Below are positions 2,869 through 19,000 of a stretch of 27,807 nucleotides of DNA, in pieces. The translations under genes and the position numbers were made by a program. Source of the DNA: a virus. Under the pieces are notes generated by a model that did not search any database, was not told the DNA's origin, and saw only the letters and a program-made list of their open reading frames with translations. Where the stretch lies: positions 1-27,807 of the IMG/VR virus record IMGVR_UViG_3300021090_000089, one strand, 5' to 3'. Numbering within the stretch: the first letter of the stretch is position 1; each line of letters opens with the position of its first letter.

Positions 2869-3102
2869 ATGAAGAAGATTTGCCAGACGTGTCACTGGGC
2901 GCGTAGTAGCCCTAGGATTATGGCATCCGTCGAAGGTTCAACCTACGTAATGCCTGGTCCGTGGTGCTCGAATTCAAAGTCCACACGCTTCGGGAGTCAA
3001 ATTCATGCTCTCGACAGCTGTCCTGAATGGATGCAACGCGACAAGAAAGGGCCCTGGTGGATACGTCTGGCAACTTGGATTCTGCGGAGACTACGCACAT
3101 GA
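2869..3102 (+). CDS. small Cys-containing (zinc-ribbon-like) protein
   Basis: 77 residues starting at the ATG at 2869, 7 nt after the previous stop. The frame is open far upstream, but that part overlaps the DUF669 gene in another frame and is not coding. The pattern is CQTCHW near the N terminus, then PGPWCSN and DSCPEW, i.e. CxxC...C...C. This spacing is common in small phage proteins that bind zinc, and the C terminus is basic. The stop overlaps the dpdA start as ATGA, so the two are translationally coupled, which hints at (but does not prove) a link to DNA modification. Function unknown. Confidence 0.7.
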   Translation: MKKICQTCHWARSSPRIMASVEGSTYVMPGPWCSNSKSTRFGSQIHALDSCPEWMQRDKKGPWWIRLATWILRRLRT

Positions 3103-3959
3103 TTCAATTGATGCATTTGGCACCTGCGCATACACATGCGCAGGTGCGCAACCAAACACTGGACGGTCGTGCAGTGATGGTGATCGGTGAGCAAGCAGAG
3201 GACGAAACGTTCCTCGCACTCCTCCGGAAGGTGAACCCGTCGTTCGTGATGCTGGACTATCCAGCGTTCGAAGGCGAAGAGGTACCGATGGAAAAGTACG
3301 CGGAGTGGATCAACAAGCTGCACCCGAACGTCATCACTGTGCCAGACGTCCGTTTCAACGGAGCCAAGACACTCGAACGAGCGCGTCAGTTCTACGAGTA
3401 CTTCTTCGGCAGTGATCTGCTACCGAACTGGCCTTGTGAACTGTTGGTCGTTCCTCAAGGCAAATCGCAAGCAGAGTGGTACGAGTGTCTTGATGGCCTG
3501 ATGGAGTTGAGACCAGACCGTGTAGCGCTAGTCGAAGAGGTCGAAGAGCTTTTCCTCGTGCCGAATGCGGACACGACCAAACTCGACGACTACGCGCCTG
3601 GACGAGTTGGCGCATTGATGGCGCTTGAGTACACGCGTCCCGAAGTGCGGCGCACACCCATACATTTCCTCGGACTCAGTGAGGAGATGGAGGAGCTGTA
3701 CTTTGCGGAGTACCTATTCCCAGGCTGGGTGCAGACGTGTGACACAGCGAAGTGTGTTGCACTGTCGAACCTTGGCATTCGGATCAATCCGATGCCCGGC
3801 ACGAAGCAGCAGAAGTACCCAGGCCGAGGCAAGCGCTACTTCCAGAAGATGATGAACTGGGACTTGTCGCGGCGTGCCTTACTTGCGCAGAACATCGGCG
3901 TCCTTGACGCTTGGTGCAAAGCGAAGGAAGGCCCACTGACGGAGGTGGAAAGTGTGTAG
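3099..3959 (+). CDS. dpdA: DpdA-like 7-deazaguanine DNA transglycosylase (TGT-like)
   Basis: 286 residues from the ATG at 3099, chosen because it overlaps the preceding stop (ATGA) with GGAG upstream; the upstream in-frame ATG at 3027 lies inside the previous gene. The protein shows a TGT-like TIM-barrel order: PSFVMLDYPAF (about 47-57), VPDVRFN (81-87), VVPQGKS (117-123), HFLGLS (189-194) and CDTAKCV (214-220). In the family these provide base-binding and catalytic aspartates (here Asp83 and Asp215). DpdA swaps guanine in DNA for a 7-deazaguanine base. The gene is followed, with overlap, by Gat-QueC, and the other pathway genes lie within 6 kb, which strongly supports the call. The sequence is divergent from tRNA TGT, so residue roles are inferred. 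Confidence 0.85.
   Translation: MIQLMHLAPAHTHAQVRNQTLDGRAVMVIGEQAEDETFLALLRKVNPSFVMLDYPAFEGEEVPMEKYAEWINKLHPNVITVPDVRFNGAKTLERARQFYEYFFGSDLLPNWPCELLVVPQGKSQAEWYECLDGLMELRPDRVALVEEVEELFLVPNADTTKLDDYAPGRVGALMALEYTRPEVRRTPIHFLGLSEEMEELYFAEYLFPGWVQTCDTAKCVALSNLGIRINPMPGTKQQKYPGRGKRYFQKMMNWDLSRRALLAQNIGVLDAWCKAKEGPLTEVESV
3120..3147 (+). promoter_or_regulatory. 12-bp hairpin within the first codons of dpdA
   Basis: GCACCTGCGCAT at 3120-3131 and its exact complement ATGCGCAGGTGC at 3136-3147 enclose the loop ACAC. A TTG/CAA extension with one bulged G could lengthen the stem. It begins 21 nt after the dpdA start codon. No U-tract follows, so a role in translation or RNA stability is more likely than classical termination. 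It codes for part of LAPAHTHAQV. Confidence 0.5.
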
Positions 3960-5502
3960 CGTTACTGGAATGTTACGAACAAAAGAGTGGTCCCCAGAGG
4001 AGTTTCAACGTGCTCTCGCCACTCTAGGACAGATTCTTGGTCGCTCCACTACACGTGGACGCGACAGTTGGGGTATTACTGCCATCTACGATAGCAAGCG
4101 AACTGAGGAGATGCGTATCACGGCGTGTTACGACTCCTCCGACTTTGACAGGTTCTGCAAGCATCTCGTCACGTTGTGGGAACTGACAAGCGACATGCCA
4201 CGTCAGTTCATCGAGAACCATCGTGCAGAGCCGACGACTGAGGCGGTGATCGACAAGTCGCGTTATGACGTGCAGCCATTCCGACGTGGAGGGTGGTTCG
4301 TCGTGCACAATGGCACGATCGCTAACGACGTTGAGATACTCGCCTCCCTCGCACCCTTGAGTACGGCTATCGGCAGTACGAAGATCGACACGTACGCTAT
4401 CGCACGGTTGCTGGAGGAGAAGATGCTCGCCAGCGCGACGATTACAGAGATGGTCGACTTGCTGCATTCGAGCGTCAAGGGCAGCTACGCATTCCTCTTC
4501 GTCAACATGGAGTTGCCGGGAACTGCGTGGCTCATTGCGAATTACAAGCCGCTACACATTCTGCACGACGAAGAGCTCGGCGCGTACTTCTACACCAGTC
4601 TAGAGGACAGTTTCGTGGATGGTGTCCTTCCTGGGCTGACAAGTTACGTACAGCAAGTGCCTCCGTACTCCATCGTCAAGTTATCCGCTGCCATCGGTGG
4701 CAAGCCGAAGTCGTGCAAGGTCACGATCGAGACGTCGTCTCTACGTGCCAATCCGAAGCAGAAGGCGTTAGTCGTCTGCAGTGGTGGACTAGACTCAACC
4801 GTGGCTGCGATGTACCTGTATAAGCGCGGCTACGAAGTTGGACTGTTGCACTTCCGTTACGGGTGTGTGGCAGAGTCACGTGAGGTGTCTGCTGTGAGTG
4901 CACTAGCTGCACTACTGCATGCGCCACTATTCTACATCAGTGTACCCGACTTCAAGGAAACTATTGGTGGCAGCACACTGTTTCAGGACCAAGCGACGTA
5001 TACGTCGGAGAAGGCGGGAATGTCGGGTGCAGAGTTCGCGTATGAGTGGGTGCCTGCACGAAACCTTGTGTTCCTATCACTCGCTGTAGCGCTAGCGGAA
5101 GCGAAGGGCTACGACTTTGTGGCGAGTGGTGTGAACCTTGAGGAGGCTGGTGCGTATCCAGACAACGAGATGATATTCATTCAGAAGCTCAACGCTGTAC
5201 TGCCTTACGCTACGCACCCAGATCGACAGGTGCACCTGCTCATGCCGACCGGCAACCTAATGAAGCGTGAGATCGTGCAGATGGGCTTGGAGTACGGCGC
5301 ACCCATCCAGCACAGCTGGAGCTGCTACTCGGAAGGCAAAGATGGTCACCACTGCGGTACATGCGGTCCGTGCTACATGCGCAAGACTGCGTTCAAGCTC
5401 GCAGGTGTGAAGGACCCCGCATTCATTCATGAGTGGGAAGACTCATTCTGGGACGGCTGCACGCCATACGTGTATCCCGTCAGCACGGAGTTGATCGCAT
5501 GA
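3952..5502 (+). CDS. gat-queC: Gat-QueC: class II glutamine amidotransferase fused to 7-cyano-7-deazaguanine synthase
   Basis: 516 residues. Translation starts at the GTG at 3952 after GGAGGTGGAA, which puts the nucleophile Cys2 (MCSVTG) at the mature N terminus, as class II amidotransferases require. The Gat domain (about 1-250) shows RGRDSWG (35-41), HNGTIAN (119-125, oxyanion and substrate site) and GSYAFLF. The QueC domain (about 270-516) has the PP-loop SGGLDST (277-283), ARN (369-371), GAYPDNE and the zinc site C458, C468, C471, C474. QueC turns CDG into the amide ADG and then preQ0 with ATP and ammonia. Ammonia from glutamine and partial stopping at an amide or amidine product explain the fusion known from archaea and from phage 9g. 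No residue loss is seen. It overlaps dpdA upstream and the polymerase downstream. Confidence 0.92.
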   Translation: MCSVTGMLRTKEWSPEEFQRALATLGQILGRSTTRGRDSWGITAIYDSKRTEEMRITACYDSSDFDRFCKHLVTLWELTSDMPRQFIENHRAEPTTEAVIDKSRYDVQPFRRGGWFVVHNGTIANDVEILASLAPLSTAIGSTKIDTYAIARLLEEKMLASATITEMVDLLHSSVKGSYAFLFVNMELPGTAWLIANYKPLHILHDEELGAYFYTSLEDSFVDGVLPGLTSYVQQVPPYSIVKLSAAIGGKPKSCKVTIETSSLRANPKQKALVVCSGGLDSTVAAMYLYKRGYEVGLLHFRYGCVAESREVSAVSALAALLHAPLFYISVPDFKETIGGSTLFQDQATYTSEKAGMSGAEFAYEWVPARNLVFLSLAVALAEAKGYDFVASGVNLEEAGAYPDNEMIFIQKLNAVLPYATHPDRQVHLLMPTGNLMKREIVQMGLEYGAPIQHSWSCYSEGKDGHHCGTCGPCYMRKTAFKLAGVKDPAFIHEWEDSFWDGCTPYVYPVSTELIA

Positions 5503-8021
5503 CAACTCCCACAGTCGATGTCGCAGCACTAAAGCGAGAGCAAGCTGAACTGATCGCTATACGCGACTCGCTGTTGAAGCTCCCGGAGCGTAGAGTGCCA
5601 GGTGAAGGTCCTAGTAGTCATACTGACATGGTGCTCGTTGGAGAAGCTCCAGGAGCGAGTGAGGTGCTGCAGCATCGGCCGTTCGTTGGTCCTAGCGGAG
5701 AGCTACTAGACCTGATGCTGCAGCTGGTAGGAATTGCACGTGGTACTGTCTGGATCACGAACGCTGTGAACTGGCGTACCATGGACAAGGACCGCAAGAA
5801 TCGTGCACCTACGCAGGCTGAGATCAACGCCGATGCGGAACGTCTTGAGTCGGAGATTCGCTCCCACAGCCCCCGGCTGATCTACTGCCTAGGTGCGACT
5901 GCAACCAAAGCAGTACTTGGGAAGTCGTTGTCGGTGGAAGAGATTCGTGGGTTCCCTATCTGGTCCATGAAGTACGAGTGTTACTGCGTCACCACCTACC
6001 ATCCGAGCGCTGTGCTACGCGACTACATGAGGTTCCCAGAGTTTCACAAGGACCTGCGAGACCACCCACGCTACCTAGAGATGGAGCTTGGTGGAGTCCA
6101 ACCGCCAGTAGTCGACTACTCAGTGTACGAAGACGCTGCGCAAGCAAACATACTCATGCAGCAGCTGATGGACTCACCCATCGGCGATATTGCGTTCGAC
6201 ATTGAGACCGACGGGTTCAACTACCAGACGGATCGCATCCTGGAGTTAGGCCTGGCCTGGTTCCGACCTAGCACGGGTGAGATACGTGCAGCGATACTTC
6301 CGATGGAAGTGGCCTGGAGCAGACCACTGCTCTCGCAGCTGATGCTCAAGAAGAACGCGGTCTGGCACAACGGTAAGTTCGACGTACGCTTCCTGCGCTA
6401 CCAGCAGGAAGTAGATGCAGCCCTCGACGACGACACCATGCTCATGCACTACGCATTAGATGAACGTCAGGGTGTGCACAGCTTGAAGATACTCGCACGC
6501 GAACGTTACAACTCGCCATGGTACGAGGGCGAGATCAAGCAGTACCTGCCTAATTCGAAGACGCCGTATAGCCGCATCCCGAATCCCATCCGCTGGAAGT
6601 ACCTTGCGTTCGACGTTTACTACACACTGATGCTAGCACGTGACCTTCGCAAGGAGATGGTAGCGGATGAAGTGCAGCACCTGTACAAGACTGTGCTGAT
6701 CGAAGGTGCACAGTCGTTCTCGAAAGCGGAGATGTACGGTATCTGCGTCGACATGCCTCACCGGGAGTACTTGCATAACGTGCTGTCGGAGGAGCTTGCG
6801 CAGAGGCAGGCAGTCATCGTTGTAGACGCCGCTAAGGTCGGCATTACTGTCACAAATGGGAAAGCGAATGCGCAGATCAATAGCTGGCTGTACGACGGTC
6901 ATAAGTGGCCTCTGTACGAAGGCAAGCGCACTAGTGTGAAGGAGTCCTTGGAGCGTTTCCCTGACAGACCGGAGACGTTCATGCTGCAGCAGTTTCGCCA
7001 GACCGCGTACCTGATAGGTACGTTCGTGAATGGGCTACCACAGCATATGGACGCGCAGGGCCTCATCCATCCGGACGTACTCATGCATGGCACAGTCACA
7101 GGTAGGCCTGTGATCCACGACCCTCCACTGCAGACCGCACCACGCAAGCACAAAGACATCAAGCGAGTGGTGTGCAAGGCTAGGCCTGGACATGTAATCG
7201 TCGCTGCAGACTACGATCAGCTGGAAATCCGGGTTATGGCGTGGTATAGCCGGGATCAGAACATGATAGACGGGTTCACCAAGCCCCTCACCATAGTCCG
7301 CAGCCCACATGAGGGGCCTCCCGCCATAGCCATGGCAGACCGGTTCGCGGAGCCCACCTACACCTGGCAGGACGTAGGAGACACGGTGTATGAGTACCAA
7401 CCTGACTTCCATACACGCGGTGCTGCACTGGCGTTCGAGAAGCCGTGGTGGGAGATTACCGAGGACGAGCGGTACGACTACAAGTTCGTCATCTTTGGTG
7501 TCCTGTATGGTCGCGGTGCACGCTCGCTAGCCCTAGACCCACAGGGGCTGCATGGCAAGACCGTCAAGCAAGCTCAGCGGTACATCGATGGTCTGTGGGC
7601 AGCGTTCCCTGACCTAAAGGCGTACTATGCTGACGTGACCAAGTACGTACTCAAGCATGGTGAGATCGTCACTGCGTTCGGACGCAAGAGGCGCTTCCCC
7701 TTCATCGGGAAGGACTTCTGGTACAAGATCGAGAAGCAGATAAAGAACTTCCCAGCGCAGAGCACTGCCAGCGATATCTGTGTGTCGGGGTTCAACGTCC
7801 TCAGTAAGGAGCTGCCGAGTCAAGTACGCGGCCAGCCTCTGTTCACAGTGTACGACAGTATCGAGTCAGAGGTGCCTGAAGACCGCGTGTCGGAGGCAGT
7901 AGCACTCGTAAAGGAAGCAATGCAAAACCCTCCACTGGAGTGGAGGAACATACCCTGGACGGTGGACGTAGAGGTAGGTCCGTCGTGGGGACAAGTCAAA
8001 CGTTATAAGGAGACTACATGA
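5499..8021 (+). CDS. polA: uracil-DNA glycosylase-like / 3'-5' exonuclease / family A DNA polymerase fusion
   Basis: 840 residues from the ATG at 5499 (ATGA overlap with queC). A family 4/5-like UDG domain (about 40-190) has GEAPG (48-52), PFVGPSG and YHPSAVLR (His168), but lacks the N-terminal CxxC of iron-sulfur UDGs. The proofreading domain has DIET (234-237), HNGKFD (290-295) and YLAFD (368-372). The polymerase domain has TVTGR, motif A DYDQLEIR (571-578), and motif B R658...K662...Y670-G671 with Phe at the ddNTP-discriminating site. Motif C is VYDS (784-787) where E. coli Pol I has VHDE. About 40 residues between motifs A and B look like an insertion. This is the likely replicative polymerase. 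N-terminal UDG fusions are known in phages such as SPO1. Confidence 0.93.
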   Translation: MTTPTVDVAALKREQAELIAIRDSLLKLPERRVPGEGPSSHTDMVLVGEAPGASEVLQHRPFVGPSGELLDLMLQLVGIARGTVWITNAVNWRTMDKDRKNRAPTQAEINADAERLESEIRSHSPRLIYCLGATATKAVLGKSLSVEEIRGFPIWSMKYECYCVTTYHPSAVLRDYMRFPEFHKDLRDHPRYLEMELGGVQPPVVDYSVYEDAAQANILMQQLMDSPIGDIAFDIETDGFNYQTDRILELGLAWFRPSTGEIRAAILPMEVAWSRPLLSQLMLKKNAVWHNGKFDVRFLRYQQEVDAALDDDTMLMHYALDERQGVHSLKILARERYNSPWYEGEIKQYLPNSKTPYSRIPNPIRWKYLAFDVYYTLMLARDLRKEMVADEVQHLYKTVLIEGAQSFSKAEMYGICVDMPHREYLHNVLSEELAQRQAVIVVDAAKVGITVTNGKANAQINSWLYDGHKWPLYEGKRTSVKESLERFPDRPETFMLQQFRQTAYLIGTFVNGLPQHMDAQGLIHPDVLMHGTVTGRPVIHDPPLQTAPRKHKDIKRVVCKARPGHVIVAADYDQLEIRVMAWYSRDQNMIDGFTKPLTIVRSPHEGPPAIAMADRFAEPTYTWQDVGDTVYEYQPDFHTRGAALAFEKPWWEITEDERYDYKFVIFGVLYGRGARSLALDPQGLHGKTVKQAQRYIDGLWAAFPDLKAYYADVTKYVLKHGEIVTAFGRKRRFPFIGKDFWYKIEKQIKNFPAQSTASDICVSGFNVLSKELPSQVRGQPLFTVYDSIESEVPEDRVSEAVALVKEAMQNPPLEWRNIPWTVDVEVGPSWGQVKRYKETT

Positions 8022-8476
8022 AGCACGCATTCCACATTTCGCGCGCGTACTGGTTCAGTGCTGCGCACCGCATTGAGAATCATCCGAAGTGCGGCAGACT
8101 ACATGGTCACAACTACAAAGTTGTGGTCACGCTGGGTGGCGATACGCTACCCTCCGATGGCATGTTACTGGACTTTGGTGCCGTCGATAAGATCGTCAAA
8201 CCCATCATTGATGGGTTGCTAGATCACCGCTACTTGGTGTCAGCGAGCAACGTTGCAGCCCACGACCCCTACTTGAAGGCCTCAGAGGAGTCACCTGACC
8301 ACGAAGCCGACATCTGCATGCTGCACACGCCTACGAGTACAGCAGAAGACATTGCATATCGTCTCTGCGCCATGATCACGGCAGCAATAGTCGCCCTGAA
8401 CCACAAGCCGTACATCGTTGTCGAGCGTGTAGCGGTTTGGGAGACTCACAGAAGTGAGGCCGTCTATGAACCCTGA
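8018..8476 (+). CDS. queD: 6-carboxy-5,6,7,8-tetrahydropterin synthase
   Basis: 152 residues; the ATG overlaps the polymerase stop (ATGA) after AAGGAG. The family motifs are all present: FSAAHRI (zinc His17), CGRLHGHNY (catalytic Cys25, zinc His29 and His31), GMLLDFGAV, LDHRYL (His70), PTSTAEDIA and the late WETHRSEA with the conserved Glu142. The length is slightly above the usual 120-140 residues, because of an insert around 75-100 rich in Asp, Glu and Pro. It converts dihydroneopterin triphosphate to carboxy-tetrahydropterin, the second step of 7-deazaguanine synthesis, using the product of FolE (9582). Its last codons overlap the queE start. Confidence 0.95.
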   Translation: MKHAFHISRAYWFSAAHRIENHPKCGRLHGHNYKVVVTLGGDTLPSDGMLLDFGAVDKIVKPIIDGLLDHRYLVSASNVAAHDPYLKASEESPDHEADICMLHTPTSTAEDIAYRLCAMITAAIVALNHKPYIVVERVAVWETHRSEAVYEP

Positions 8477-9227
8477 ACCGATAGGTCTCGATGCCAGACT
8501 CGCAGTGAGTGAAGTCTTCGGACCCACGATTCAGGGCGAGGGAAAGAACCTTGGCAGGCCAGTCATGTTCCTTCGTCTGATGGGTTGCAACCAACACTGT
8601 GTGTGGTGCGACACTCCGTGGACGTGGAGATTCTCTGAGCAGTGGCCACACGAGGGTGGCAAGGTGTTCTCAGCGAAGGAAGAGACGAAGATACGCACTG
8701 CGAGCGAGCTTTTGGACGCGTTGGAATTCTGGCCCAACCGCGGCCTAACTCGCTCACTCGTCCTCAGCGGTGGTGAGCCGATGTTGCAGCAGGATCAACT
8801 CCAACCCCTCACGGAAGCACTTCGCATCCGTGGCTGGTGGGTCGAGATGGAAACCGCTGGTACAGTAGTCCCTATGCATGAGAGTCTTGTCGCGCAGTAT
8901 ACAGTCTCGCCGAAACTGTCCAACTCCGGCAACGCAGAAGCACTTCGTCACAACAAAGCTGCTCTTCGGAAGTTCGCAGCGCTGTCAGAAGAAGGCAAGG
9001 CGGTGTTCAAGTTCGTCTGCGCAGATATGCGCGATATGCAGGAGGCCGATGCTATCGTCCGCGAGTACGAAATCAACGAACTCAACGTGTACGTCATGCC
9101 CTTAGGAATCACGCAGGACGCACTCAACATTCACACGCACGAGATTGTCGAAGCCGCGATGCGGCGTGGGTACAACATTACTACTCGGCTGCACATCACA
9201 CTGTACGGGAATCGGAGAGGTGTGTGA
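8466..9227 (+). CDS. queE: 7-carboxy-7-deazaguanine synthase (radical SAM)
   Basis: 253 residues. The ATG at 8466 is preferred over the in-frame GTG at 8454 because GTGAGG forms the RBS 6 nt before it. TIQGEG (21-26) is the QueE substrate-side signature. CNQHCVWC (C41, C45, C48) is the CxxxCxxC site for the 4Fe-4S/SAM cluster, followed by DTPWTW; LSGGEPM (100-106) is the SAM-binding GGE motif. It rearranges carboxy-tetrahydropterin to CDG, the substrate of QueC. It overlaps queD by 11 nt and shares one base with the HNH gene, so it lies in the same operon. Confidence 0.94.
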   Translation: MNPEPIGLDARLAVSEVFGPTIQGEGKNLGRPVMFLRLMGCNQHCVWCDTPWTWRFSEQWPHEGGKVFSAKEETKIRTASELLDALEFWPNRGLTRSLVLSGGEPMLQQDQLQPLTEALRIRGWWVEMETAGTVVPMHESLVAQYTVSPKLSNSGNAEALRHNKAALRKFAALSEEGKAVFKFVCADMRDMQEADAIVREYEINELNVYVMPLGITQDALNIHTHEIVEAAMRRGYNITTRLHITLYGNRRGV

Positions 9228-9592
9228 TGTCGAAGTCGAAGCACTACGTCGGGGCTTGCTCACGCTGCGGAGTACATCGGGATACACTGCATCGTGATCA
9301 TGTGATACCCAAATGGGCTAGTGGCTCAGACGACGAGTCGAACATCCAATATCTATGTGCAAACTGTCACGAAGATAAGACGCGTGAGGAGCGTGCTCAG
9401 TATGGGTGGGCAGAGAAGTGTCAGGACCCACAACGTATCGCAAAGCTAAAAGCTGTGAAGCGGTCTCCTACGTGGGTGGCTGCAGTAACCTCAGCTGCAA
9501 AAGAGTGGTGGCGTACGCTACCAGAAGCCAAGAAGCGCGAACACGCAGAAGCGCGTCGCGAAGAATCAAAGAGGAGGAACCATGCCAGTTGA
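9227..9592 (+). CDS. HNH endonuclease
   Basis: 121 residues from the ATG at 9227, with GGAGAGG upstream; it shares one base with the queE stop. The nuclease core has CSRCG (C11, C14), HRDHVIP (Asp24, His25), SNIQYLC (Asn39) and CANCHEDK (C44, C47, His48). This is a complete HNH fold with a structural zinc site. The remaining 65 residues are a basic, Glu/Lys/Arg-rich helix. It overlaps the folE start by 11 nt, so it is part of the modification operon. It may be a free-standing homing-type nuclease or a nuclease acting on unmodified DNA; the sequence does not decide. Confidence 0.88.
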   Translation: MSKSKHYVGACSRCGVHRDTLHRDHVIPKWASGSDDESNIQYLCANCHEDKTREERAQYGWAEKCQDPQRIAKLKAVKRSPTWVAAVTSAAKEWWRTLPEAKKREHAEARREESKRRNHAS

Positions 9593-10148
9593 CGTTGAAC
9601 GTATCGAATTCTTGACTACCGAACTCCTACGTGCCATCGGTGAGGACCCTGGAACTCCTGAACTGAAGGACACACCGCGTCGAGTTGCACACGCGTGGAG
9701 AGAGTTCATTGACTACGACCCCGGCAACCACGAAACCACTTTCGAATCAGTAACTGCCAATCAGATGGTAGTAGTAAGTGGTATGCGTGTTTGGTCGTAT
9801 TGTGCGCACCACCTAATTCCATTCTGGACTGACATCTCGATCGGGTACCTGACTGGCCACAAAGTGCTGGGGTTGTCTAAGTTCGGGCGGATCTCACAGC
9901 TCTGTGCACACCGCCTGCAGCTGCAGGAACGTCTTGTGGAGCAGATTAGCGACGAGGTGGAGCGTCTCACGGAGACTCCACACGTAGCAGTACTTGCGGT
10001 TGGAGAACATCTCTGTATGGTGTCACGCGGGATCAAACTCCCATCACGCATGGTATCTAGTTCTCTCAAGGGTGCCTTTCGTGAGGAGCCTGATGCACGT
10101 GCCGAGTTCTACAAGCTGGTGGAGATGTCCACTCGGAGGACGGGATGA
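9582..10148 (+). CDS. folE: GTP cyclohydrolase I
   Basis: 188 residues, start ATG after GAGGAGGAACC. Family motifs: DTPRRVAHAW (30-39), SYCAHHLIPF (Cys74 and His77 as zinc ligands), GLSKFGRI (97-104), QLQERL, and GEHLCM (Cys145, third zinc ligand). The common E of the SMCEHHLLPF motif is Ala here, which is not catalytic. It converts GTP to dihydroneopterin triphosphate, supplying QueD. The stop overlaps the next start (ATGA). Its presence means the phage encodes every step from GTP to the base and does not depend on host folate enzymes for this supply. Confidence 0.95.
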   Translation: MPVDVERIEFLTTELLRAIGEDPGTPELKDTPRRVAHAWREFIDYDPGNHETTFESVTANQMVVVSGMRVWSYCAHHLIPFWTDISIGYLTGHKVLGLSKFGRISQLCAHRLQLQERLVEQISDEVERLTETPHVAVLAVGEHLCMVSRGIKLPSRMVSSSLKGAFREEPDARAEFYKLVEMSTRRTG

Positions 10149-10537
10149 CCATTCCTATTACGAGTGAGACTATCGTTACTGCAGTCATCTGTGGACTGCT
10201 CGGATTGCTCGCCGCCTACGCGCTCGTTATCAAACCGCGCAGACCAGACCCTTGGGAACGACATCGAGCTGCAGACGAACGTACGAAGGTGCAAATCATG
10301 GCGTACACTATCTCACTCCGTACACTCTACGAAGCTGCACAGCACTCGTCTAGCGCTGAGTTCATCGCGTACGTGATATATAGAATCAGTCTCGAGTGGG
10401 GTGACAACGACGCCTACCGCGAGATTCGGCGTCGGTACTATACAGTCACTAATACGCAGTTCGACTTCTCGTCTCCACAGCCCATCTTGACGGCAGAGCA
10501 GTTGAAGCAGGAGATTCAGAAGACCAGGTACAGGTAG
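10145..10537 (+). CDS. small membrane protein of unknown function
   Basis: 130 residues, ATGA overlap with folE. One N-terminal membrane segment (about 8-27, VTAVICGLLGLLAAYALV) is followed by a positively charged KPRR, so the rest (about 100 residues, helical, with several Arg and Tyr) should face the cytoplasm. I do not recognise the family. It is the last gene of the modification operon; a hairpin follows at 10549-10575. Confidence 0.75.
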   Translation: MTIPITSETIVTAVICGLLGLLAAYALVIKPRRPDPWERHRAADERTKVQIMAYTISLRTLYEAAQHSSSAEFIAYVIYRISLEWGDNDAYREIRRRYYTVTNTQFDFSSPQPILTAEQLKQEIQKTRYR

Positions 10538-10548
10538 TGGGGAACACG

Positions 10549-10575
10549 GAGGGCAGTTCGGAAGGAACTGCCCTC
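10549..10575 (+). terminator. probable terminator hairpin of the replication/modification operon
   Basis: GAGGGCAGTTC (10549-10559) pairs perfectly with GAACTGCCCTC (10565-10575) around the loop GGAAG. It starts 11 nt after the stop of the 10145 gene. No U-run follows, so termination may need Rho or rely on the stem alone. Confidence 0.7.
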
Positions 10576-10579
10576 TCAC

Positions 10580-10670
10580 GATATAGGCACTCTCTAATCT
10601 ATTGCTAATCAAAATGGGGGAATCGCTAATCCTAGGCTAATCCGCATACCGTATAATTAGATATAGGCAC
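10580..10670 (+). repeat. 11-bp direct repeat flanking the CTAATC array
   Basis: GATATAGGCAC occurs at 10580-10590 and again at 10660-10670, exactly 80 bp apart, bracketing the four CTAATC hexamers and the TATAAT box. The second array at 11378 lacks the upstream copy. Confidence 0.6.
10594..10657 (+). promoter_or_regulatory. phased CTAATC array (four copies) plus -10 box
   Basis: CTAATC starts at 10594, 10605, 10626 and 10637 (steps 11, 21, 11 bp), so all four lie on about the same face of the helix. TATAAT at 10652-10657 starts 15 bp after the last copy. No TTGACA-like -35 exists at the proper distance (10629-10634 reads ATCCTA), which suggests an activator- or repressor-controlled promoter. 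The expected transcript starts near 10664 and leads into the SD and ATG of the gene at 10724. The same geometry recurs at 11378-11441. The whole 10538-10723 gap is taken up by the terminator, this array and the leader. Confidence 0.7.
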
Positions 10671-10723
10671 ACACATAACACCAAGTGAAGTAGTCAGTGC
10701 CGATCTTATTCAGGAGGTGCCAC

Positions 10724-11038
10724 ATGGCAGATTGGATTTGTGTCAAGCCGGGTTGCGGTCACACTGTAATTGCAGCAGACCGACCCCAACCGATCAATTG
10801 GTCGGATGGTCACACGTGTTACTTTCGCAAGGTGCACACAGGTGAGAAGTTCGGTGACCTGAAGGGCCGTCTGGAGAGCGAAGACGAAATGGTCTTCGTC
10901 GATATGGGACCGGGCAAGGAGTGCTTGCTGGTGAGCAATCACTTAGCGGAGAACCGATACGAAGTGGTCGACACTTACGGTGGCTTCGGAATCGAAACGA
11001 TCACGGACGACACTCATGCATGGACGGAGCCGACATAA
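10724..11038 (+). CDS. hypothetical Cys/His-containing protein
   Basis: 104 residues from the ATG at 10724 behind CAGGAGGTG; the in-frame GTG at 10697 has no RBS and is passed over. The N-terminal half holds Cys6, Cys11, His13 and Cys32 (a possible metal site), and the C-terminal half is acidic. I do not recognise it. It is the first gene behind the CTAATC promoter. Its stop TAA is part of the TAAGGAGGTATC that serves as RBS for the next, amber-split ORF. Confidence 0.75.
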   Translation: MADWICVKPGCGHTVIAADRPQPINWSDGHTCYFRKVHTGEKFGDLKGRLESEDEMVFVDMGPGKECLLVSNHLAENRYEVVDTYGGFGIETITDDTHAWTEPT

Positions 11039-11047
11039 GGAGGTATC

Positions 11048-11227
11048 ATGCGCAACTTTATCGCAGTCTTCGTCAACAACATTTCGCAGAACGAATTTTC
11101 CACGCCCATCCAGGCGTACACCTAGGACCAGGCTGTCGCGATTGCCGAAAAGATCGCCCGCGACGAAACGATGGATTACACTAACGGTGTGATGCTCAAG
11201 AGCGTCACTGCGCTGGAAACTAAATAG
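11048..11227 (+). pseudogene. small ORF interrupted by an in-frame amber codon
   Basis: ATG at 11048 follows a near-perfect SD (AAGGAGGTATC). The frame reads 25 codons (MRNFIAVFVNN...PIQAYT), meets TAG at 11123-11125, then continues for 33 sensible codons beginning DQAVAIAEKIARDETMDYTN and ends at TAG 11225-11227. Codon usage and amphipathic character are the same on both sides, so one substitution (for example from GAG, CAG or AAG) would restore a 59-residue protein. The second half has no RBS of its own. Options are a recent point mutation, readthrough or suppression, or a sequencing error. Neighbouring genes use TAG as a true stop, so genome-wide recoding is unlikely. Confidence 0.6.
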
Positions 11228-11258
11228 GCAACAACCGGCTTGACCTACGAGGAATGAA

Positions 11259-11357
11259 ATGCCCCACGACGCGACTTCAGCTGCAGGGCAGCTATCGGCG
11301 GTAGGTTCGGTCGGATCTTGCGAACGTCGTACGTGGAAGAACAATCGTCGCCCGTAG
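11259..11357 (+). CDS. possible 32-residue peptide
   Basis: ATG at 11259 with CGAGGAA six bases upstream opens a 32-codon frame (MPHDATSAAG... ending NNRRP) that stops at TAG 11355-11357. An alternative ATG at 11254 in another frame gives only 16 codons. The support is the RBS and the lack of any other use for the stretch between 11228 and the next promoter. No family is recognised. Confidence 0.3.
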   Translation: MPHDATSAAGQLSAVGSVGSCERRTWKNNRRP

Positions 11358-11377
11358 AAGGAGGCTCACTAGACTCT

Positions 11378-11441
11378 CTAATCTATCTCTAATCTAACTC
11401 AAGTGTTTGCTAAGCCTACGCTAATCAATGTATCCTAAAAT
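11378..11441 (+). promoter_or_regulatory. second phased CTAATC array plus -10 box
   Basis: Hexamers start at 11378, 11389, 11410 (CTAAGC, one mismatch) and 11421, with the same 11-21-11 steps as at 10594. TAAAAT at 11436-11441 again lies 15 bp after the start of the last copy. No -35 consensus is present. The first transcribed bases are also alike at both sites (an ATAT then ACACACA stretch). It drives the gene at 11500, whose RBS is AGGAGG in the leader. Confidence 0.7.
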
Positions 11442-11499
11442 TATTATATGAACACACACAAGGTTCACACACTTTTTCACAGGCAACAGGAGGCCTAAA

Positions 11500-11889
11500 A
11501 TGACTACTACTCTGTCCGCTCACGTCCCAGGCACAAAGGTGTATCTCACCTGTAACGACACGTGCCACAATGCCACAGGTGAGGAATGCGATTGCATCTG
11601 TGGCGGTGCCAATCACGGTTGTAATCATATTGGTGTACAACCCCAGGCAGTGGCGATGACGATCCCGGCGCGCTTCAAAGAGCACTTTCCGGAAGATGCG
11701 CAAGCGTCACTGACGTTCCATGACACGCCCGCGAAGGTAGCGGTTGCTCACACTGAGTCGGCAGACGCTGCAGTACGCGATGAAGCTCAGACGGAAGTGG
11801 AAACGACACCGGAGCCAATCGATGTCGAGGCAGTACTCGCAGAAATCGCGCGCAACGAAGAGAATGCGCAGGACGTACTCAATGACTGA
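11500..11889 (+). CDS. Cys-rich phage protein with CxCGGxNHG motif
   Basis: 129 residues, start ATG after ACAGGAGGCC. The N-terminal 45 residues hold CNDTCHNATGEECDCICGG followed by ANHGC (C18, C22, C30, C32, C34, C41, with H39 and H43). This resembles a zinc-binding CxCGGxNHG element that I associate with small phage proteins of unknown function. The C-terminal half is acidic and Ala/Glu-rich, probably helical or disordered. It overlaps the next gene by 8 nt. Role unknown; it is probably one unit with the coiled-coil protein that follows. Confidence 0.75.
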   Translation: MTTTLSAHVPGTKVYLTCNDTCHNATGEECDCICGGANHGCNHIGVQPQAVAMTIPARFKEHFPEDAQASLTFHDTPAKVAVAHTESADAAVRDEAQTEVETTPEPIDVEAVLAEIARNEENAQDVLND

Positions 11890-12772
11890 CACGCATACGA
11901 ACCAAGGGAGCGCTGGCGACAGCACTCCTCTCGGCTTACAACAACGTCAGCAGTTCGCAAACCTGGTGGGTGAGAAGGCGAAGAACGTCATCGCTGCTCT
12001 CCAAAAGGAAGTGACTGCCGACGCCGACGCGATCGAAACTCGGTTGCTCGCACGCAACGGTTTGTCGATGTCCTACGACGACTTGGAGCGAGAGATCCGC
12101 AAGTTGCAGCGTCAGCTGGACGAAGTTGACTTCGACGATGACGCGACTTGGTCGAACCTGAAGGAGCAGCGCGACGATCTCGACGAGACTGTCGAGAGTG
12201 AGCAGCAGTTGATTCGTCAGCGTTACGAGGCAGAGATTCAGAGCGTACGCTCGAAGATGAATCAGGAACTACACCAAGCCACAACTGGTAAGTCCGAGCG
12301 CGAAGCAGTACTCACACAGCAGATGGAAGTGCGTGAAGAGGAACTATTGAAGGTGCTCGTTCCAGGTGTGCAAGAGCAGATCGATACGTTGCGTACACAG
12401 GTTCCAACTGCACGTGCATTGTCTCGCTCGTTGCGCACTGAAGTAGAGCACACGCAGCAAGCGATTGAGCAGAGCCGCGGACGTCTCGTAGCACTCGTTG
12501 GTGACGCTGCAGTACGCGCGAAGACCAACCTGTTGATGGCGACCACGATGGGAGAGGCACGCAAGTGGCTCGACTCCATCCCGAGTGTTGCTGAGATGAT
12601 CGCAATCGCTGAGAATCCCGAGCAAGGTCTCAAGGGCATGGTGGAGCGTCTCACGCCAGAGTTCCGGTTGTCCTTACCTCAGCCCAAATCTGAGGACACC
12701 ACGGAAACTGACGAATCTGAAGTGGAAATTTCACGCTCTAACCAAGCTATCGAAGTGCAGTTCGTCGACTAG
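11882..12772 (+). CDS. coiled-coil protein of unknown function
   Basis: 296 residues from the ATG at 11882; the open frame extends back to 11744, but that part overlaps the Cys-rich gene. Residues about 35-205 are almost continuous heptad-rich helix (REIRKLQRQL, LKEQRDDLDE, QQMEVREEELLKVL), predicted to form long coiled coils, with few Gly or Pro. The C-terminal 40 residues are acidic. I see no enzymatic motif. The stop is 9 nt before the next start, so the two genes are co-transcribed. Confidence 0.75.
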   Translation: MTDTHTNQGSAGDSTPLGLQQRQQFANLVGEKAKNVIAALQKEVTADADAIETRLLARNGLSMSYDDLEREIRKLQRQLDEVDFDDDATWSNLKEQRDDLDETVESEQQLIRQRYEAEIQSVRSKMNQELHQATTGKSEREAVLTQQMEVREEELLKVLVPGVQEQIDTLRTQVPTARALSRSLRTEVEHTQQAIEQSRGRLVALVGDAAVRAKTNLLMATTMGEARKWLDSIPSVAEMIAIAENPEQGLKGMVERLTPEFRLSLPQPKSEDTTETDESEVEISRSNQAIEVQFVD

Positions 12773-12781
12773 AAGGTAATA

Positions 12782-13588
12782 ATGGACTCCGGGTACAACG
12801 TTCGAATTTTGAACTATCTAGACCCGATGTGGGTTGAGAGGAAGGTGACGGCTGTCACCTTCCCTGCACCACCATTTCCGGTCCTAGGAACCATCTATGC
12901 GGAGGACAGTTGGCGCTCGGATGTACTGGAGCGCGGGGAGGAAATCTTCCGCAACAAAGGGCACAGAGTTCGCGGTAGCACATTCACTGGACGTGGACCC
13001 GCATTCATTATCGAGTACCGTCTAGGGCAGCTGTTCGACCTAAACCTAGTGAGGCTCGACTCACGTGATATCGCGGTTGTACCGAAGTCGATCTACTGTG
13101 CCTCGACGTCGTATGCTACAATACTAGAGACACCGAAGCTGAGGTATGCGACAGACGCGATACTTGAGAGTGTCCAACTTATCGCGAAGTCGTGTCATCC
13201 CGCATCCCACACAGCCATACCGATGGCACCTTGGCTTACGCTGCTACTGCAGCTAGAGCGAGCCGAACGAAAGGAGGCGAACGGATTCATCTTCGCGGAC
13301 GACGTCACCGCAGGCTTATACTTCACTGACGTCGACTTCAGTGCCAACGCAGCGGTGGATCAACTGTTCCAGTACGCGACAGTATCCGACTGCTTCGATC
13401 ATGAAGCACGTCTCGACGTACGAGACACGGTAGTTCTTTATCCGACACTGTCCGAACACCTGCGCTACCAAATGCTGCCGCTGCTGCAGAGCAACGAGCG
13501 CCTGGCTGTGAAGGCGACGGACGCTATTGACCGAGTGCTGAGGATTCAGCGCCGGAATGCTAATGCTATGGAGGCTCAGAATGGGTAA
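12782..13588 (+). CDS. hypothetical protein
   Basis: 268 residues, ATG at 12782 with AGAAGGT eight bases upstream. Mixed alpha/beta composition with no Walker, metal or membrane motif that I recognise. There are several aromatic-rich beta segments in the first 130 residues and a helical C-terminal part. A perfect 10-bp inverted repeat lies 58 nt into the gene (12840-12863). The last codons overlap the next gene by 8 nt. Confidence 0.7.
   Translation: MDSGYNVRILNYLDPMWVERKVTAVTFPAPPFPVLGTIYAEDSWRSDVLERGEEIFRNKGHRVRGSTFTGRGPAFIIEYRLGQLFDLNLVRLDSRDIAVVPKSIYCASTSYATILETPKLRYATDAILESVQLIAKSCHPASHTAIPMAPWLTLLLQLERAERKEANGFIFADDVTAGLYFTDVDFSANAAVDQLFQYATVSDCFDHEARLDVRDTVVLYPTLSEHLRYQMLPLLQSNERLAVKATDAIDRVLRIQRRNANAMEAQNG
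12840..12863 (+). promoter_or_regulatory. 10-bp intragenic hairpin near a gene start
   Basis: GGAAGGTGAC (12840-12849) and GTCACCTTCC (12854-12863) pair perfectly around GGCT. It lies 58 nt after the ATG at 12782. It may act as an attenuator or stability element, or be chance. Confidence 0.35.
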
Positions 13589-15882: not shown

Positions 15883-16998
15883 TTACGCGCCTGGCAGCCA
15901 GGCTTGGAAGACACCCATGCGAGAACCACCAGAAGCAGTCCATGATGCAGAGTGACTTGGGAAGGGCTGTATCGTTGTCGAGCCAATTGTGACATACGCG
16001 CTCTCGACGGGGACAGCGTTGTCTTGAGCATCTGGCAGCCGTACGACTCCACCACCGTTGAGTGTGAGGGGGAGTGTATACGTATGAGTAGTCGCGTTGC
16101 TCGTTCCGTTGAGAGGCTCCGCCACGTGTATGTGGAACACGCCGGCTGTACTGTTGAGACCACCCGCGAGACCATCACCGGAGACCTTGTAGCTGTACGA
16201 GGCTGACCCTGGCACTGCACTGTAGCCCGTGATCGTCGGGACCCACTTCATCCAGCGTGTGGACATTACAGGCCAGTTGATGACGATCGAAGTCGCGGGA
16301 ATTGACCACAGATACGTCGCAGAGACACCCAGAGTGGCGTTGAAGCGTCCAATGAGTGCGACTTCATCTGTCCCTGCGGGAGCAGCTCCAGAGAACATCG
16401 CATACCGTGTTAGTGTAACCGTTGTGCTGAAGTGCGAGTATAGGAAGGCCCACGGGATACGTGCAGCAGCGATGAATACGCTACTGTCGCTAGCACGCCA
16501 TCCCAGATACACGAACAGGTCAACGTCTTGCGTCGAGTTCTCAGCACCTCCTAAGTTTGCGTAGTTCTGTCCTGCGTTCGCAGTAAAGCTGAGTGCGGCG
16601 GTGATCGTACGCATCGTGTTGCCGATACGTATCGTCACTGGACTCGCAGGCGTCGGATCGTTGCCGTTTTTGTCCTTGAGAGCGATGACGAGGTTGTTGC
16701 TCACGACAGTGCGTGAGATTTGGTAGTTCAACCCGAAGCCCTGAGGCCCAACCACCTGGTTGAGGAAGTGGTCCCACCTGACTCCGAGCGACTGAGCAGC
16801 CTCCGTAATAAGCACGGATCCGTCTGTTCCTGGGTTTAGCACACCCATCGTATCGACTCCAGACGCTATCGCTAACTGCCCCTTCGCACTGAAGACGTCG
16901 GGTACACCAGCCGCCATGTTATCGCGCCAGTACGTGTTCAGGAATGGTTCGTCGATCGTGTCGCCAGTCAAGAACGTCGGGACTGGTGTGTACGTCAT
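15883..16998 (-). CDS. tail fibre/appendage protein, paralogue of the 14647 gene
   Basis: 371 residues. The N terminus (TPVPTFLTGDTIDEPFLNTYWRDN broken here: TPVPTFLTGD, then NTYWRDNMA) is the short collagen-free attachment peptide seen at the start of many phage tail proteins. From about 110 on it parallels the neighbouring fibre: DLFVYLGWRASDSSVFIAAAR, SGAAPAGTD, IGRFNAT, WVPTITGYSAVP. The start ATG overlaps the stop of the upstream gene and has GGAGGTG before it. It is a structural, extracellular tail component by context; the receptor is unknown. Confidence 0.75.
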   Translation of the reverse strand: MTYTPVPTFLTGDTIDEPFLNTYWRDNMAAGVPDVFSAKGQLAIASGVDTMGVLNPGTDGSVLITEAAQSLGVRWDHFLNQVVGPQGFGLNYQISRTVVSNNLVIALKDKNGNDPTPASPVTIRIGNTMRTITAALSFTANAGQNYANLGGAENSTQDVDLFVYLGWRASDSSVFIAAARIPWAFLYSHFSTTVTLTRYAMFSGAAPAGTDEVALIGRFNATLGVSATYLWSIPATSIVINWPVMSTRWMKWVPTITGYSAVPGSASYSYKVSGDGLAGGLNSTAGVFHIHVAEPLNGTSNATTHTYTLPLTLNGGGVVRLPDAQDNAVPVESAYVTIGSTTIQPFPSHSASWTASGGSRMGVFQAWLPGA

Positions 16999-17477
16999 TG
17001 GTCACCTCCGTAGGTAGTATTCATCTCGCGTAAGTCCGCAGGCGACTGTCCAGGGTACCAGTTCCTTGGCAGCACTGCGATCTTCGGTCGTGCAAGGCGA
17101 GCGCTCTCGATCAGGTCTCGAGCGCTCGAGTTCTCAGTTACCGGGCGTTCCATCAATGCTTGCTCAATCGCAAGTCGTGTCATCAGTGGTGGGAACAGCA
17201 CCTGCCGTGCTAGTCCCGAGTTGCCGTTACCACAGCGTGCACAGTACAAGAAGGGCTCATCAGGATCCGCATAGCTGTGCTGTCCGCAAGGACATGCGAC
17301 TGCCCAGCGTCCGAAGTCAACGAACGCCGAGAGTGGTGAACCACCAACTCGCTGCCCATCCCAGGCAGCTGTAAACTTGCCGAGAGCGATCGACTGGTGA
17401 GAGAGTACGAGCATCCACTCCGCAACCGAAGGGAAGCCGGCTCTCATGGCAACGTCGCGTGCAGTGATTAGTCGCAT
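16995..17477 (-). CDS. zinc-ribbon-containing tail-module protein
   Basis: 160 residues. The start is the ATG at 17475-17477 with TAGGAG eight bases upstream; the open frame reaching 17603 lies in the tail tip gene. The centre has a CPCG...CARCGNG pair (CxC...CxxC) resembling a rubredoxin-like zinc knuckle. The C-terminal segment LPRNWYPGQSPADLREMN resembles a motif I know from small proteins in phage tail regions. The N-terminal helices (ITARDVAMRAGFPS) look like a small DNA- or protein-binding unit. Function unknown; it sits between the tail tip and the fibres. Confidence 0.7.
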   Translation of the reverse strand: MRLITARDVAMRAGFPSVAEWMLVLSHQSIALGKFTAAWDGQRVGGSPLSAFVDFGRWAVACPCGQHSYADPDEPFLYCARCGNGNSGLARQVLFPPLMTRLAIEQALMERPVTENSSARDLIESARLARPKIAVLPRNWYPGQSPADLREMNTTYGGDQ

Positions 17478-17488
17478 AGCATTCACTC

Positions 17489-19000
17489 CTAAGCTACCAC
17501 CATCGGAATGGTGTGTGGCACGGTCCAAAGATTGGCTGCGGGCGTAGTGACAGGCTCGAGCTGCACTTCGAGGAGTGTGTTTGAGCCAGCCGCGTTTGTC
17601 CACTGACCACGTACGTAGTAGACACGATAAGTTCCTGTGATACCGACAGTCGTGAGGTTGACGTCGACCTGCGTACCTAAGTCGAGCGCGAACTGCTTAT
17701 CCGGAGTCGTCTTCATCGCGAACGCCAAGTGCTTCTGTGTGGGTGCGTATTGCGAGCGAAGCCTGCGTGCGAAGTAGGACGCGTAGTTGGTGTTGTCGAC
17801 CCAGGGATAGTCAACGCGAAGTGTGCGTACATTGAAGAGCGCTATGCTTGCAGTATCGTCTGCAGTCCCACCATCTGCCTCCGTAACTCCGAGTAGGCGT
17901 GTGCCACGAACCACAAGGGGCACTGTTACGTATCCTGCGGTGAGTCCGTTGTTCGTGACGAGCAAGCGGCCGCTGGATGCGAACTGATCCACGGACACCG
18001 AGAAGTCGGCAGTAAGGTCGAGACCTGTGCCATCGTCTGCTGTGTTCGCGAAGTAGTCGACTCCAGACACGGGCTGTGTCACACTCACTACTGCCGCTAA
18101 CGGGTCACCGTACGTGAAGTCGATGATACGTTCGAAAGACTCTCCCGCCACTAACCTGATCGGACTTGACGACTGCCACATAACACCAAATGTCTGCGTA
18201 CGTATCGTAGTGCTAACGCGTATCGAGTTTCGGATGGAGTCCCACGGCTCGATGATTTGTAGTGAGCCTAGGAACACGTCAGCGTCCGTGATTGTGAAGG
18301 CACTCACTTCCGTGAAGTGTCGGTTGCGGAACGTCAAGCTCCCATCCCCAGCGAGCCAGAGACGCCCGAGCTCACTGAAGGCGAGATCGTAGAGTGCGCT
18401 CGAAGCACTAATGCCTGCAGCGTACCAGTTGGGATGTGCATCAACGCCGTGTTGGAGGTCTCTACCCCAGACCGTAGGCCAGCCGATCTTATCGAGCACA
18501 AGGTTCATAGACACGTCACAGCGTAGTGTCGACTGCAGTGGGATATCGATGAGGCTCTTCTGATCACGTAGTGTACCCCAGCCGTCCTCACCACTGAGTT
18601 GAATACGTCGTATGCCACGACCAATGCGTGTCGTTGGCACACCTGTCTTGCCTGACATCAAATCGTAGCGCAGTCCGGATGGCGATTGCACCCAGAGTCG
18701 GAACAGACGCCCGACATTCGCATTAGGGTTCGAGAAGGGATCGTATACTGCGTTCGGGTCTTGTAACACGCAGTTGAGTCTTCCGACGGTATCAGTTTCG
18801 AAGCCCTCTCCACTTGCTGACACGATGTAACGCTTCCCGCGTTCCCAGTTCAGACTGCTCATCGCGAGGGCGTCGTTGTGACCGTCGAAGAGTCCGTCCC
18901 CGTCCCAGTCGATCTCGAGTGCGAAGCGATCTTGGATGTCCGTCTCGGACCCGAACTGGAACTCACCGAACTTACCCTTACCAAAGCGTGCGAAAGTCAT
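17489..19000 (-). CDS. tail tip / baseplate hub-like protein
   Basis: 503 residues, directly downstream of the tape measure gene and overlapping its stop (TAATG). The N-terminal part has the phage tail pattern FALEIDWDGDGLFDGHND with a calcium-like DxDxDGxxD motif, followed by SLNWERGK...GFETDTVGRLNCVLQDPNAVYDPFS, typical of tail proteins that carry a distal-tail-like domain. The C-terminal half is beta-rich (TGTYRVYYVRGQW, LLEVQLEPV). By position it forms the tail tip complex. No hydrolase motif is visible. Confidence 0.8.
   Translation of the reverse strand: MTFARFGKGKFGEFQFGSETDIQDRFALEIDWDGDGLFDGHNDALAMSSLNWERGKRYIVSASGEGFETDTVGRLNCVLQDPNAVYDPFSNPNANVGRLFRLWVQSPSGLRYDLMSGKTGVPTTRIGRGIRRIQLSGEDGWGTLRDQKSLIDIPLQSTLRCDVSMNLVLDKIGWPTVWGRDLQHGVDAHPNWYAAGISASSALYDLAFSELGRLWLAGDGSLTFRNRHFTEVSAFTITDADVFLGSLQIIEPWDSIRNSIRVSTTIRTQTFGVMWQSSSPIRLVAGESFERIIDFTYGDPLAAVVSVTQPVSGVDYFANTADDGTGLDLTADFSVSVDQFASSGRLLVTNNGLTAGYVTVPLVVRGTRLLGVTEADGGTADDTASIALFNVRTLRVDYPWVDNTNYASYFARRLRSQYAPTQKHLAFAMKTTPDKQFALDLGTQVDVNLTTVGITGTYRVYYVRGQWTNAAGSNTLLEVQLEPVTTPAANLWTVPHTIPMVVA

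What the first reader, a model, noticed from the sequence alone, without database searches (positions are those of the whole stretch)
3099..10148. Complete phage-encoded pathway predicted to put an archaeosine-type base (dG+) into DNA
Seen: intact FolE, QueD, QueE and QueC motifs and a TGT/DpdA-like protein in one overlapping operon, with QueC fused to a class II amidotransferase whose Cys2 nucleophile is preserved by a GTG start. Known: Gat-QueC occurs in archaeal archaeosine synthesis, and in Enterobacteria phage 9g it goes with dG+ in DNA. No QueF or ArcS is visible in the window. Inference: the phage DNA carries dG+ (or dADG/dPreQ0) and resists restriction enzymes. The system type has precedent; the exact base, in this lineage, is open.
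Basis: partly seen in the sequence, partly recalled or inferred. Interest (0 to 1): 0.75.

Follow-up and report, generated by a model that had tools for sequence, protein, structure and literature searches.

The report
Phage pathway for archaeosine-type DNA base
This uncultured phage carries the full gene set to make a modified guanine (most likely archaeosine) and swap it into its own DNA, using the same finishing enzyme as phage 9g but a very different, distantly related swapping enzyme.

Summary
FolE, QueD, QueE and a Gat-QueC fusion are all present, with intact active sites, in one tightly overlapping operon. Gat-QueC starts at a GTG that places Cys at position 2. QueF and ArcS are absent from the window. 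The weak point was the "TGT/DpdA-like" protein at 3099: Pfam and NCBIfam give nothing, and the 9g DpdA profile does not match it. A 25-member family found here settles it. The family profile picks the crystallised DNA preQ0 insertase DpdA (7UI4, E 1e-6, next hit 0.21). The AlphaFold models match only TGT and DpdA among the 50 structures listed. The protein is therefore a DpdA, but of the subfamily in Campylobacter phage CP220 and Flavobacterium phage immuto, not the 9g type. Eleven other virus contigs pair this transglycosylase with Gat-QueC. Where a relative has plain QueC, ArcS or QueF can stand in for the Gat domain. Best reading: preQ0 is made, inserted in DNA and amidated to dG+, as measured in Gat-QueC phages 9g and Vid5. 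The kind of system is known; the pairing is a variant. Whether all guanines are replaced, as in CP220, is untested. Unexpectedly, the window has no TTAA site.

The parts
2869..3102 (+). Small ORF (77 aa, unknown) translationally coupled to dpdA by an ATGA overlap
   Evidence: read directly
3099..3959 (+). DpdA-type DNA guanine transglycosylase, CP220/immuto ('DpdA3-like') subfamily; predicted to exchange guanine in DNA for a 7-deazaguanine
   Evidence: family HMM; PDB profile hit 7UI4 E 1e-6; hhalign vs 9g-type DpdA E 1.7e-5; AF2 + Foldseek to TGT/DpdA; invariant D53, D83, H189, G192, D215
3952..5502 (+). Gat-QueC: class II amidotransferase (Cys2) fused to 7-cyano-7-deazaguanine synthase; predicted preQ0 synthesis and amidation to G+
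   Evidence: phrog_10428 E 4e-121, Pfam QueC E 3e-55; 38.6% identical to 9g Gat-QueC; key residues intact
5499..8021 (+). UDG (family 4-like) - 3'-5' exonuclease - DNA polymerase I fusion, inside the operon; replicase, not a pathway enzyme
   Evidence: Pfam UDG E 7e-28, DNA_pol_A E 7e-53, DNA_pol_A_exo1 E 1e-12; recurrent neighbour of this DpdA subfamily
8018..8476 (+). QueD, 6-carboxy-tetrahydropterin synthase
   Evidence: Pfam PTPS E 7e-27; phrog_2389 E 8e-24; CxxxHGH motif read directly
8466..9227 (+). QueE, radical-SAM 7-carboxy-7-deazaguanine synthase (likely ATG 8466; GTG 8454 possible)
   Evidence: phrog_2076 E 8e-55, TIGR03365 E 2e-29; CxxxCxxC read directly
9224..9592 (+). HNH endonuclease gene lodged between queE and folE; probable homing insertion
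   Evidence: Pfam HNH E 6e-11; no HNH match between queE and folE in the relatives
9582..10148 (+). FolE, GTP cyclohydrolase I, first step of the pathway
   Evidence: Pfam E 1e-48; NF006826 165 bits over a 162-bit cut-off

Best explanation
The operon makes a 7-deazaguanine and puts it into the phage's own DNA. FolE, QueD and QueE turn GTP into 7-carboxy-7-deazaguanine. The QueC half of Gat-QueC makes preQ0. The DpdA-type transglycosylase (3099-3959) cuts guanine out of finished DNA through a covalent Asp intermediate and joins in preQ0. The Gat half takes ammonia from glutamine so that the cyano group becomes the amidine of archaeosine. The final base is most likely dG+, and its most likely use is to block host nucleases that read guanine. 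Shown here: gene identities, active-site residues, TGT fold, operon structure, and repeated pairing of this DpdA subfamily with Gat-QueC. Inferred: the chemistry, the order of the last two steps, the base, the extent of replacement, and the protective role.
For: Gat-QueC is full length and keeps every Gat and QueC motif residue checked. 9g Gat-QueC plus DpdA are enough to put dG+ in E. coli DNA (PMC6884629), and Vid5, also a Gat-QueC phage, has dG+ in about 7.6% of its guanines (PMC8306585). The 3099 protein is a TGT-fold DpdA. It sits in the DpdA slot: among Gat-QueC virus loci the 9g-type DpdA and this type never occur together. Finishing enzymes substitute for one another within this DpdA family: Gat-QueC in the window group, plain QueC + ArcS in L095, plain QueC + QueF in L102. 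CP220, whose DNA has all dG as dADG, has this DpdA type, no 9g type and no Gat domain.
Against: No base has been measured in this lineage. The window DpdA is the most diverged of its family (end branch 4.33, at most 28% identity), and the conserved GI-x-EE stretch reads VALVEE here. Its substrate could therefore be ADG, preQ0 or G+ base. The window is a fragment, so a further modifying gene elsewhere in the genome is not excluded. TM-scores to TGT are moderate (0.44-0.61).
Confidence: 0.78

Rival explanations
1. Same pathway, but the base in DNA is dPreQ0 or dADG: this divergent DpdA inserts an intermediate and the Gat half is idle or works only on the QueC step.
For: This DpdA subfamily goes with 100% dADG in CP220 (PMC8306585). 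DpdA can be promiscuous: Vibrio phage nt-1, which has ArcS, carries mostly dPreQ0 with a little dADG and dG+ (PMC6884629).
Against: CP220 has plain QueC with no Gat domain, so its dADG does not predict the Gat-QueC outcome. Gat catalytic residues are conserved across the DpdA3-like/Gat-QueC group, which argues that Gat is used. Both measured Gat-QueC phages named in the papers read have dG+.
Confidence: 0.15
2. The genes serve RNA, not DNA: the phage raises queuosine or archaeosine in host tRNA and the 3099 protein is a tRNA transglycosylase.
For: The fold is shared with tRNA-guanine transglycosylases, and some phages with preQ0 genes and no recognised DpdA were suggested to boost tRNA Q (PMC6884629).
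Against: The best sequence hit in the PDB is the DNA enzyme DpdA, not a TGT. The family includes CP220 and immuto, and CP220 DNA is fully modified with no other DpdA found. Pfam TGT has no match in any of the related records.
Confidence: 0.04
3. The operon is decaying and inactive: the very long DpdA branch reflects loss of function.
For: End branch 4.33 in the DpdA tree; an HNH gene has entered the operon.
Against: Every reading frame is open, gene overlaps are intact, and all invariant family residues and all checked Gat, QueC, QueD, QueE and FolE motifs are kept.
Confidence: 0.03

Closest known systems
Enterobacteria phage 9g dG+ pathway (FolE, QueD, QueE, Gat-QueC, DpdA1; KJ419279)
   Same: Same five functions; Gat-QueC 38.6% identical over 95% of its length, same Gat and QueC motif residues, amidation by Gat-QueC rather than ArcS or QueF.
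   Different: 9g DpdA profile does not match the window. Gene order differs, and the replicase in the operon is a UDG-PolA fusion.
Campylobacter phage CP220 / Flavobacterium phage immuto DpdA (the subfamily I recall as DpdA3, Cui et al. 2023, paper not held)
   Same: The window transglycosylase falls in this HMM family with shared invariant D53, D83, H189, G192 and D215; CP220 and immuto have no 9g-type DpdA.
   Different: CP220 has plain QueC and immuto QueF, not Gat-QueC; only about 20% identity. Measured base in CP220 is dADG at 100%.
Archaeal Gat-QueC plus arcTGT (tRNA archaeosine, Thermoproteales/Sulfolobales)
   Same: Gat-QueC 40-44% identical, with the same catalytic residues.
   Different: Archaeal partner is a tRNA TGT; here the partner is a DNA-type transglycosylase and the genes are in a phage operon.
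Uncultured phages L011, L012, L013, L037, L086, L087, L088, L092, L093 (IMG/VR)
   Same: Same module: AAA/SSB genes, QueD-QueE-FolE, same DpdA subfamily, Gat-QueC, UDG-PolA.
   Different: In these the que genes and folE lie upstream of dpdA and no HNH is seen between queE and folE; in the window they lie downstream of polA.

Membership tests
Phage dG+ (9g-type) DNA modification pathway | FolE, QueD and QueE present and intact | tested here: met
   motifs read
Phage dG+ (9g-type) DNA modification pathway | An amidotransferase for the last step: Gat-QueC, ArcS or QueF-L | tested here: met
   Gat-QueC; no QueF or ArcS in the window
Phage dG+ (9g-type) DNA modification pathway | 9g-type DpdA (DpdA1) | tested here: not met
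   A2 profile finds 9g (E 9e-131) but nothing in the window record; another DpdA subfamily fills the slot
Phage dG+ (9g-type) DNA modification pathway | dG+ in virion DNA | not testable with these tools
   needs LC-MS
Gat-QueC | N-terminal class II Gat with Cys2 fused to QueC with SGGxDS, VPxRN, YPD and four zinc Cys | tested here: met
   C2, S277-S282, V367-N371, Y402-D404, C458, C468, C471, C474; signature residues from PMC13329287
TGT/DpdA superfamily | TGT fold | tested here: met
   AF2 pLDDT 76.7 and 81.8, pTM 0.78 and 0.83; Foldseek E about 1e-7, the 50 listed hits all TGT or DpdA
TGT/DpdA superfamily | Sequence homology with catalytic Asp residues | tested here: met
   7UI4 E 1e-6; hhalign E 1.7e-5 aligning D53 with DSGAF and D215 with TDSS
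TGT/DpdA superfamily | Cys3-His zinc site of tRNA TGT | tested here: not met
   no invariant Cys in the 25-member alignment; the 9g-type DpdA alignment has none either, so it does not define phage DpdA
CP220/immuto DpdA subfamily ('DpdA3') | Falls in the same HMM family and carries its invariant residues | tested here: met
   E 1e-64 in the iterated family (window sequence included in the model); single-sequence phmmer before that: L012 E 8e-17, immuto E 1e-6
CP220/immuto DpdA subfamily ('DpdA3') | Replacement of all guanines | not testable with these tools
   documented in the papers read for CP220 and CPt10 only

The most novel reading that the evidence does not exclude
The phage, like CP220, replaces essentially all of its guanines, but with archaeosine, a positively charged base: a genome in which every G is cationic. 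The DpdA subfamily allows full replacement in CP220, and Gat-QueC gives dG+ in 9g and Vid5; this pairing would combine both.
Probability: 0.2. Interest if true: 0.75.

Novelty: new variant of a known kind. Interest (0 to 1): 0.45.

Why it matters
Phage 7-deazaguanine DNA is an established anti-restriction strategy, so the system type is not new. The variant matters for three reasons. It shows that the insertion enzyme and the finishing enzyme are separately swappable: the same DpdA subfamily is found with Gat-QueC, ArcS, QueF or plain QueC. It gives a sequence-level reason to look at a DpdA that standard family libraries (Pfam, NCBIfam) do not recognise; many such genes are annotated hypothetical (CP220 gp056, Youna2, BSP7). 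And it makes a testable question concrete: whether complete replacement is a property of the transglycosylase, in which case Gat-QueC partners should give fully dG+ genomes.

Tried and rejected
Single-sequence searches for the 3099 protein failed (Pfam, NCBIfam, PDB phmmer). I did not take that as evidence against DpdA, because Pfam TGT also misses 9g DpdA. An 8-sequence alignment gave no useful profile hit; more relatives were needed. Direct scans of IMG/VR with the DpdA or the window Gat-QueC alone found nothing; the Gat-QueC alignment route worked. Weak QueF matches in relatives lie below cut-off and, where I compared coordinates, within folE, so they read as homologous T-fold FolE, not QueF. 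I tested whether the missing TTAA sites show that a guanine modification shields G-containing sites. Across Gat-QueC phages this fails as a rule: 15 strongly avoided palindromes contain G and one does not. The DpdA3-like/Gat-QueC group itself avoids no G-containing palindrome (0 of 12 loci, against 13 of 59 with 9g-type DpdA, p 0.11; against 7 of 16 non-Gat relatives, p 0.01), but loci are not independent, so I treat this as a hint only. The Gat-QueC tree does not place the window firmly.

Full report
WHAT IS THERE. The window is a 27.8-kb linear virus record with no megablast match (first 14 kb searched) in 50,697 phage records. The plus strand from about 0.5 to 14 kb carries replication and modification genes; the minus strand carries virion genes (head protease, major head, tail tape measure). 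The region 3099-10148 is a chain of genes that overlap by a few bases: dpdA, gat-queC, a UDG-exonuclease-PolA fusion, queD, queE, an HNH gene and folE. The identities of FolE, QueD, QueE and Gat-QueC are beyond doubt. All 39 Gat and QueC residues checked are the same as in 9g and archaeal Gat-QueC, except T122, which is Ile in one archaeal reference; the QueC signature comes from PMC13329287.

THE TRANSGLYCOSYLASE. This was the uncertain part. Standard libraries say nothing about the 3099 protein, but Pfam TGT also says nothing about the proven 9g DpdA. The only phage hit was a 21%-identical protein of Flavobacterium phage immuto annotated DpdA, which in turn matched proteins of Campylobacter CP220-group phages, Weizmannia Youna2, Chryseobacterium MA9V-3, Aeromonas Ahp1 and Bacillus BSP7. 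Most of these lie among QueD, QueE, FolE or QueC genes. A scan of IMG/VR with a Gat-QueC alignment then gave loci in which relatives of the window protein sit just upstream of gat-queC, and two more scans enlarged the family. The 25-member profile finds the crystallised DNA preQ0 insertase DpdA (7UI4) at E 1e-6, next hit 0.21. It aligns with the 9g-type profile at E 1.7e-5 with the catalytic Asp positions in register. Two AlphaFold models (pLDDT 77 and 82) match TGT and DpdA structures throughout the 50 listed hits. Invariant residues are D53, D83, H189, G192 and D215.

PAIRING. Among Gat-QueC virus loci, the 9g-type DpdA and this type never occur together. Two Gat-QueC loci with no DpdA nearby turned out to have this type elsewhere in the record, and the window, CP220, immuto and the other records of this type tested have no 9g-type DpdA. 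Within this DpdA family the finishing step varies: Gat-QueC in the window and eleven other contigs, ArcS with plain QueC in L095, QueF with plain QueC in L102. That pattern of substitution supports Gat-QueC as the finishing enzyme here.

WHICH BASE. 9g Gat-QueC and DpdA together put dG+ into E. coli DNA, and DpdA alone gives dPreQ0 (PMC6884629). Phage Vid5, whose Gat-QueC is 38% identical to the window's, has dG+ in about 7.6% of guanines (PMC8306585). CP220, with this DpdA type but no Gat domain, has every dG replaced by dADG. The best prediction is therefore dG+. From memory only (Cui et al. 2023, not held), the CP220 type is called DpdA3 and allows complete replacement. If so, complete replacement by dG+ is possible here; I give it 0.2.

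TREES. The window DpdA has a very long branch (4.33) and its place in the family is unsure. The window Gat-QueC falls in the part of the tree that holds archaeal forms and the other phages of this DpdA type, away from the large 9g-type phage group, but without firm support.

MISSING TTAA. The window has no TTAA in 27.8 kb: 19.7 expected from trinucleotides and 34.8 from synonymous-codon shuffles, lowest of 300 being 22. It is the most depleted of all 256 tetramers and not depleted in the relatives. TTAA has no guanine, so guanine modification could not protect it; a TTAA-cutting host enzyme would explain the loss. But G-free avoidance is not a rule among Gat-QueC phages, so I do not use it as proof of protection.

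VERDICT. Observation confirmed and interpretation supported, with one change: the transglycosylase is of the CP220/immuto subfamily rather than the 9g one. Known kind of system, variant pairing. Whether anyone has already described a Gat-QueC phage with this DpdA subfamily I could not establish, because the 2023 paper on DpdA subfamilies is not held.

Noticed in passing
window 1-27807: No TTAA site at all: 19.7 expected by Markov model, 34.8 by synonymous-codon shuffling. Most depleted tetramer; relatives do not show it. Suggests selection by a TTAA-cutting host enzyme.
   Followed up: partly
window 5499-8021; L011, L012, L013, L037, L086, L087, L088, L092, L093, L095-L098, L102, L007, L010: A UDG domain fused to a family A polymerase is a recurrent neighbour of this DpdA subfamily, while nearly all 9g-type DpdA loci lack it. 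The window UDG keeps GEAPG and HPS motifs. Reason unknown.
   Followed up: partly
window 9224-9592: HNH endonuclease gene inserted between queE and folE with tiny overlaps on both sides; not matched at that place in relatives. Probable homing element.
   Followed up: partly
L006 11995-12771 (CP220 gp056, YP_009169190.1): The Campylobacter phages with 100% dADG were grouped in 2019 with those lacking DpdA; this hypothetical protein belongs to the DpdA family found here and is the likely transglycosylase. From memory, Cui et al. 2023 may already report this.
   Followed up: yes
L102 record (G012:C1:41745-41963) and L095 record (G010:C1:10296-10634): Relatives with plain QueC carry QueF (L102) or an ArcS-type DUF5591 protein (L095), predicting dPreQ1 and dG+ respectively.
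   Followed up: partly
L004, L005, L080, L016, L026, L082, L099, L007: Several phages with 7-deazaguanine genes still avoid one G-containing palindrome almost completely (AGCT, GTAC or GATC), suggesting incomplete or motif-limited protection.
   Followed up: no
window 15883-19000 and 10145-13588: Large tail-region and early-region ORFs without a match or with only a weak one in PHROGs: a poorly sampled phage lineage.
   Followed up: no
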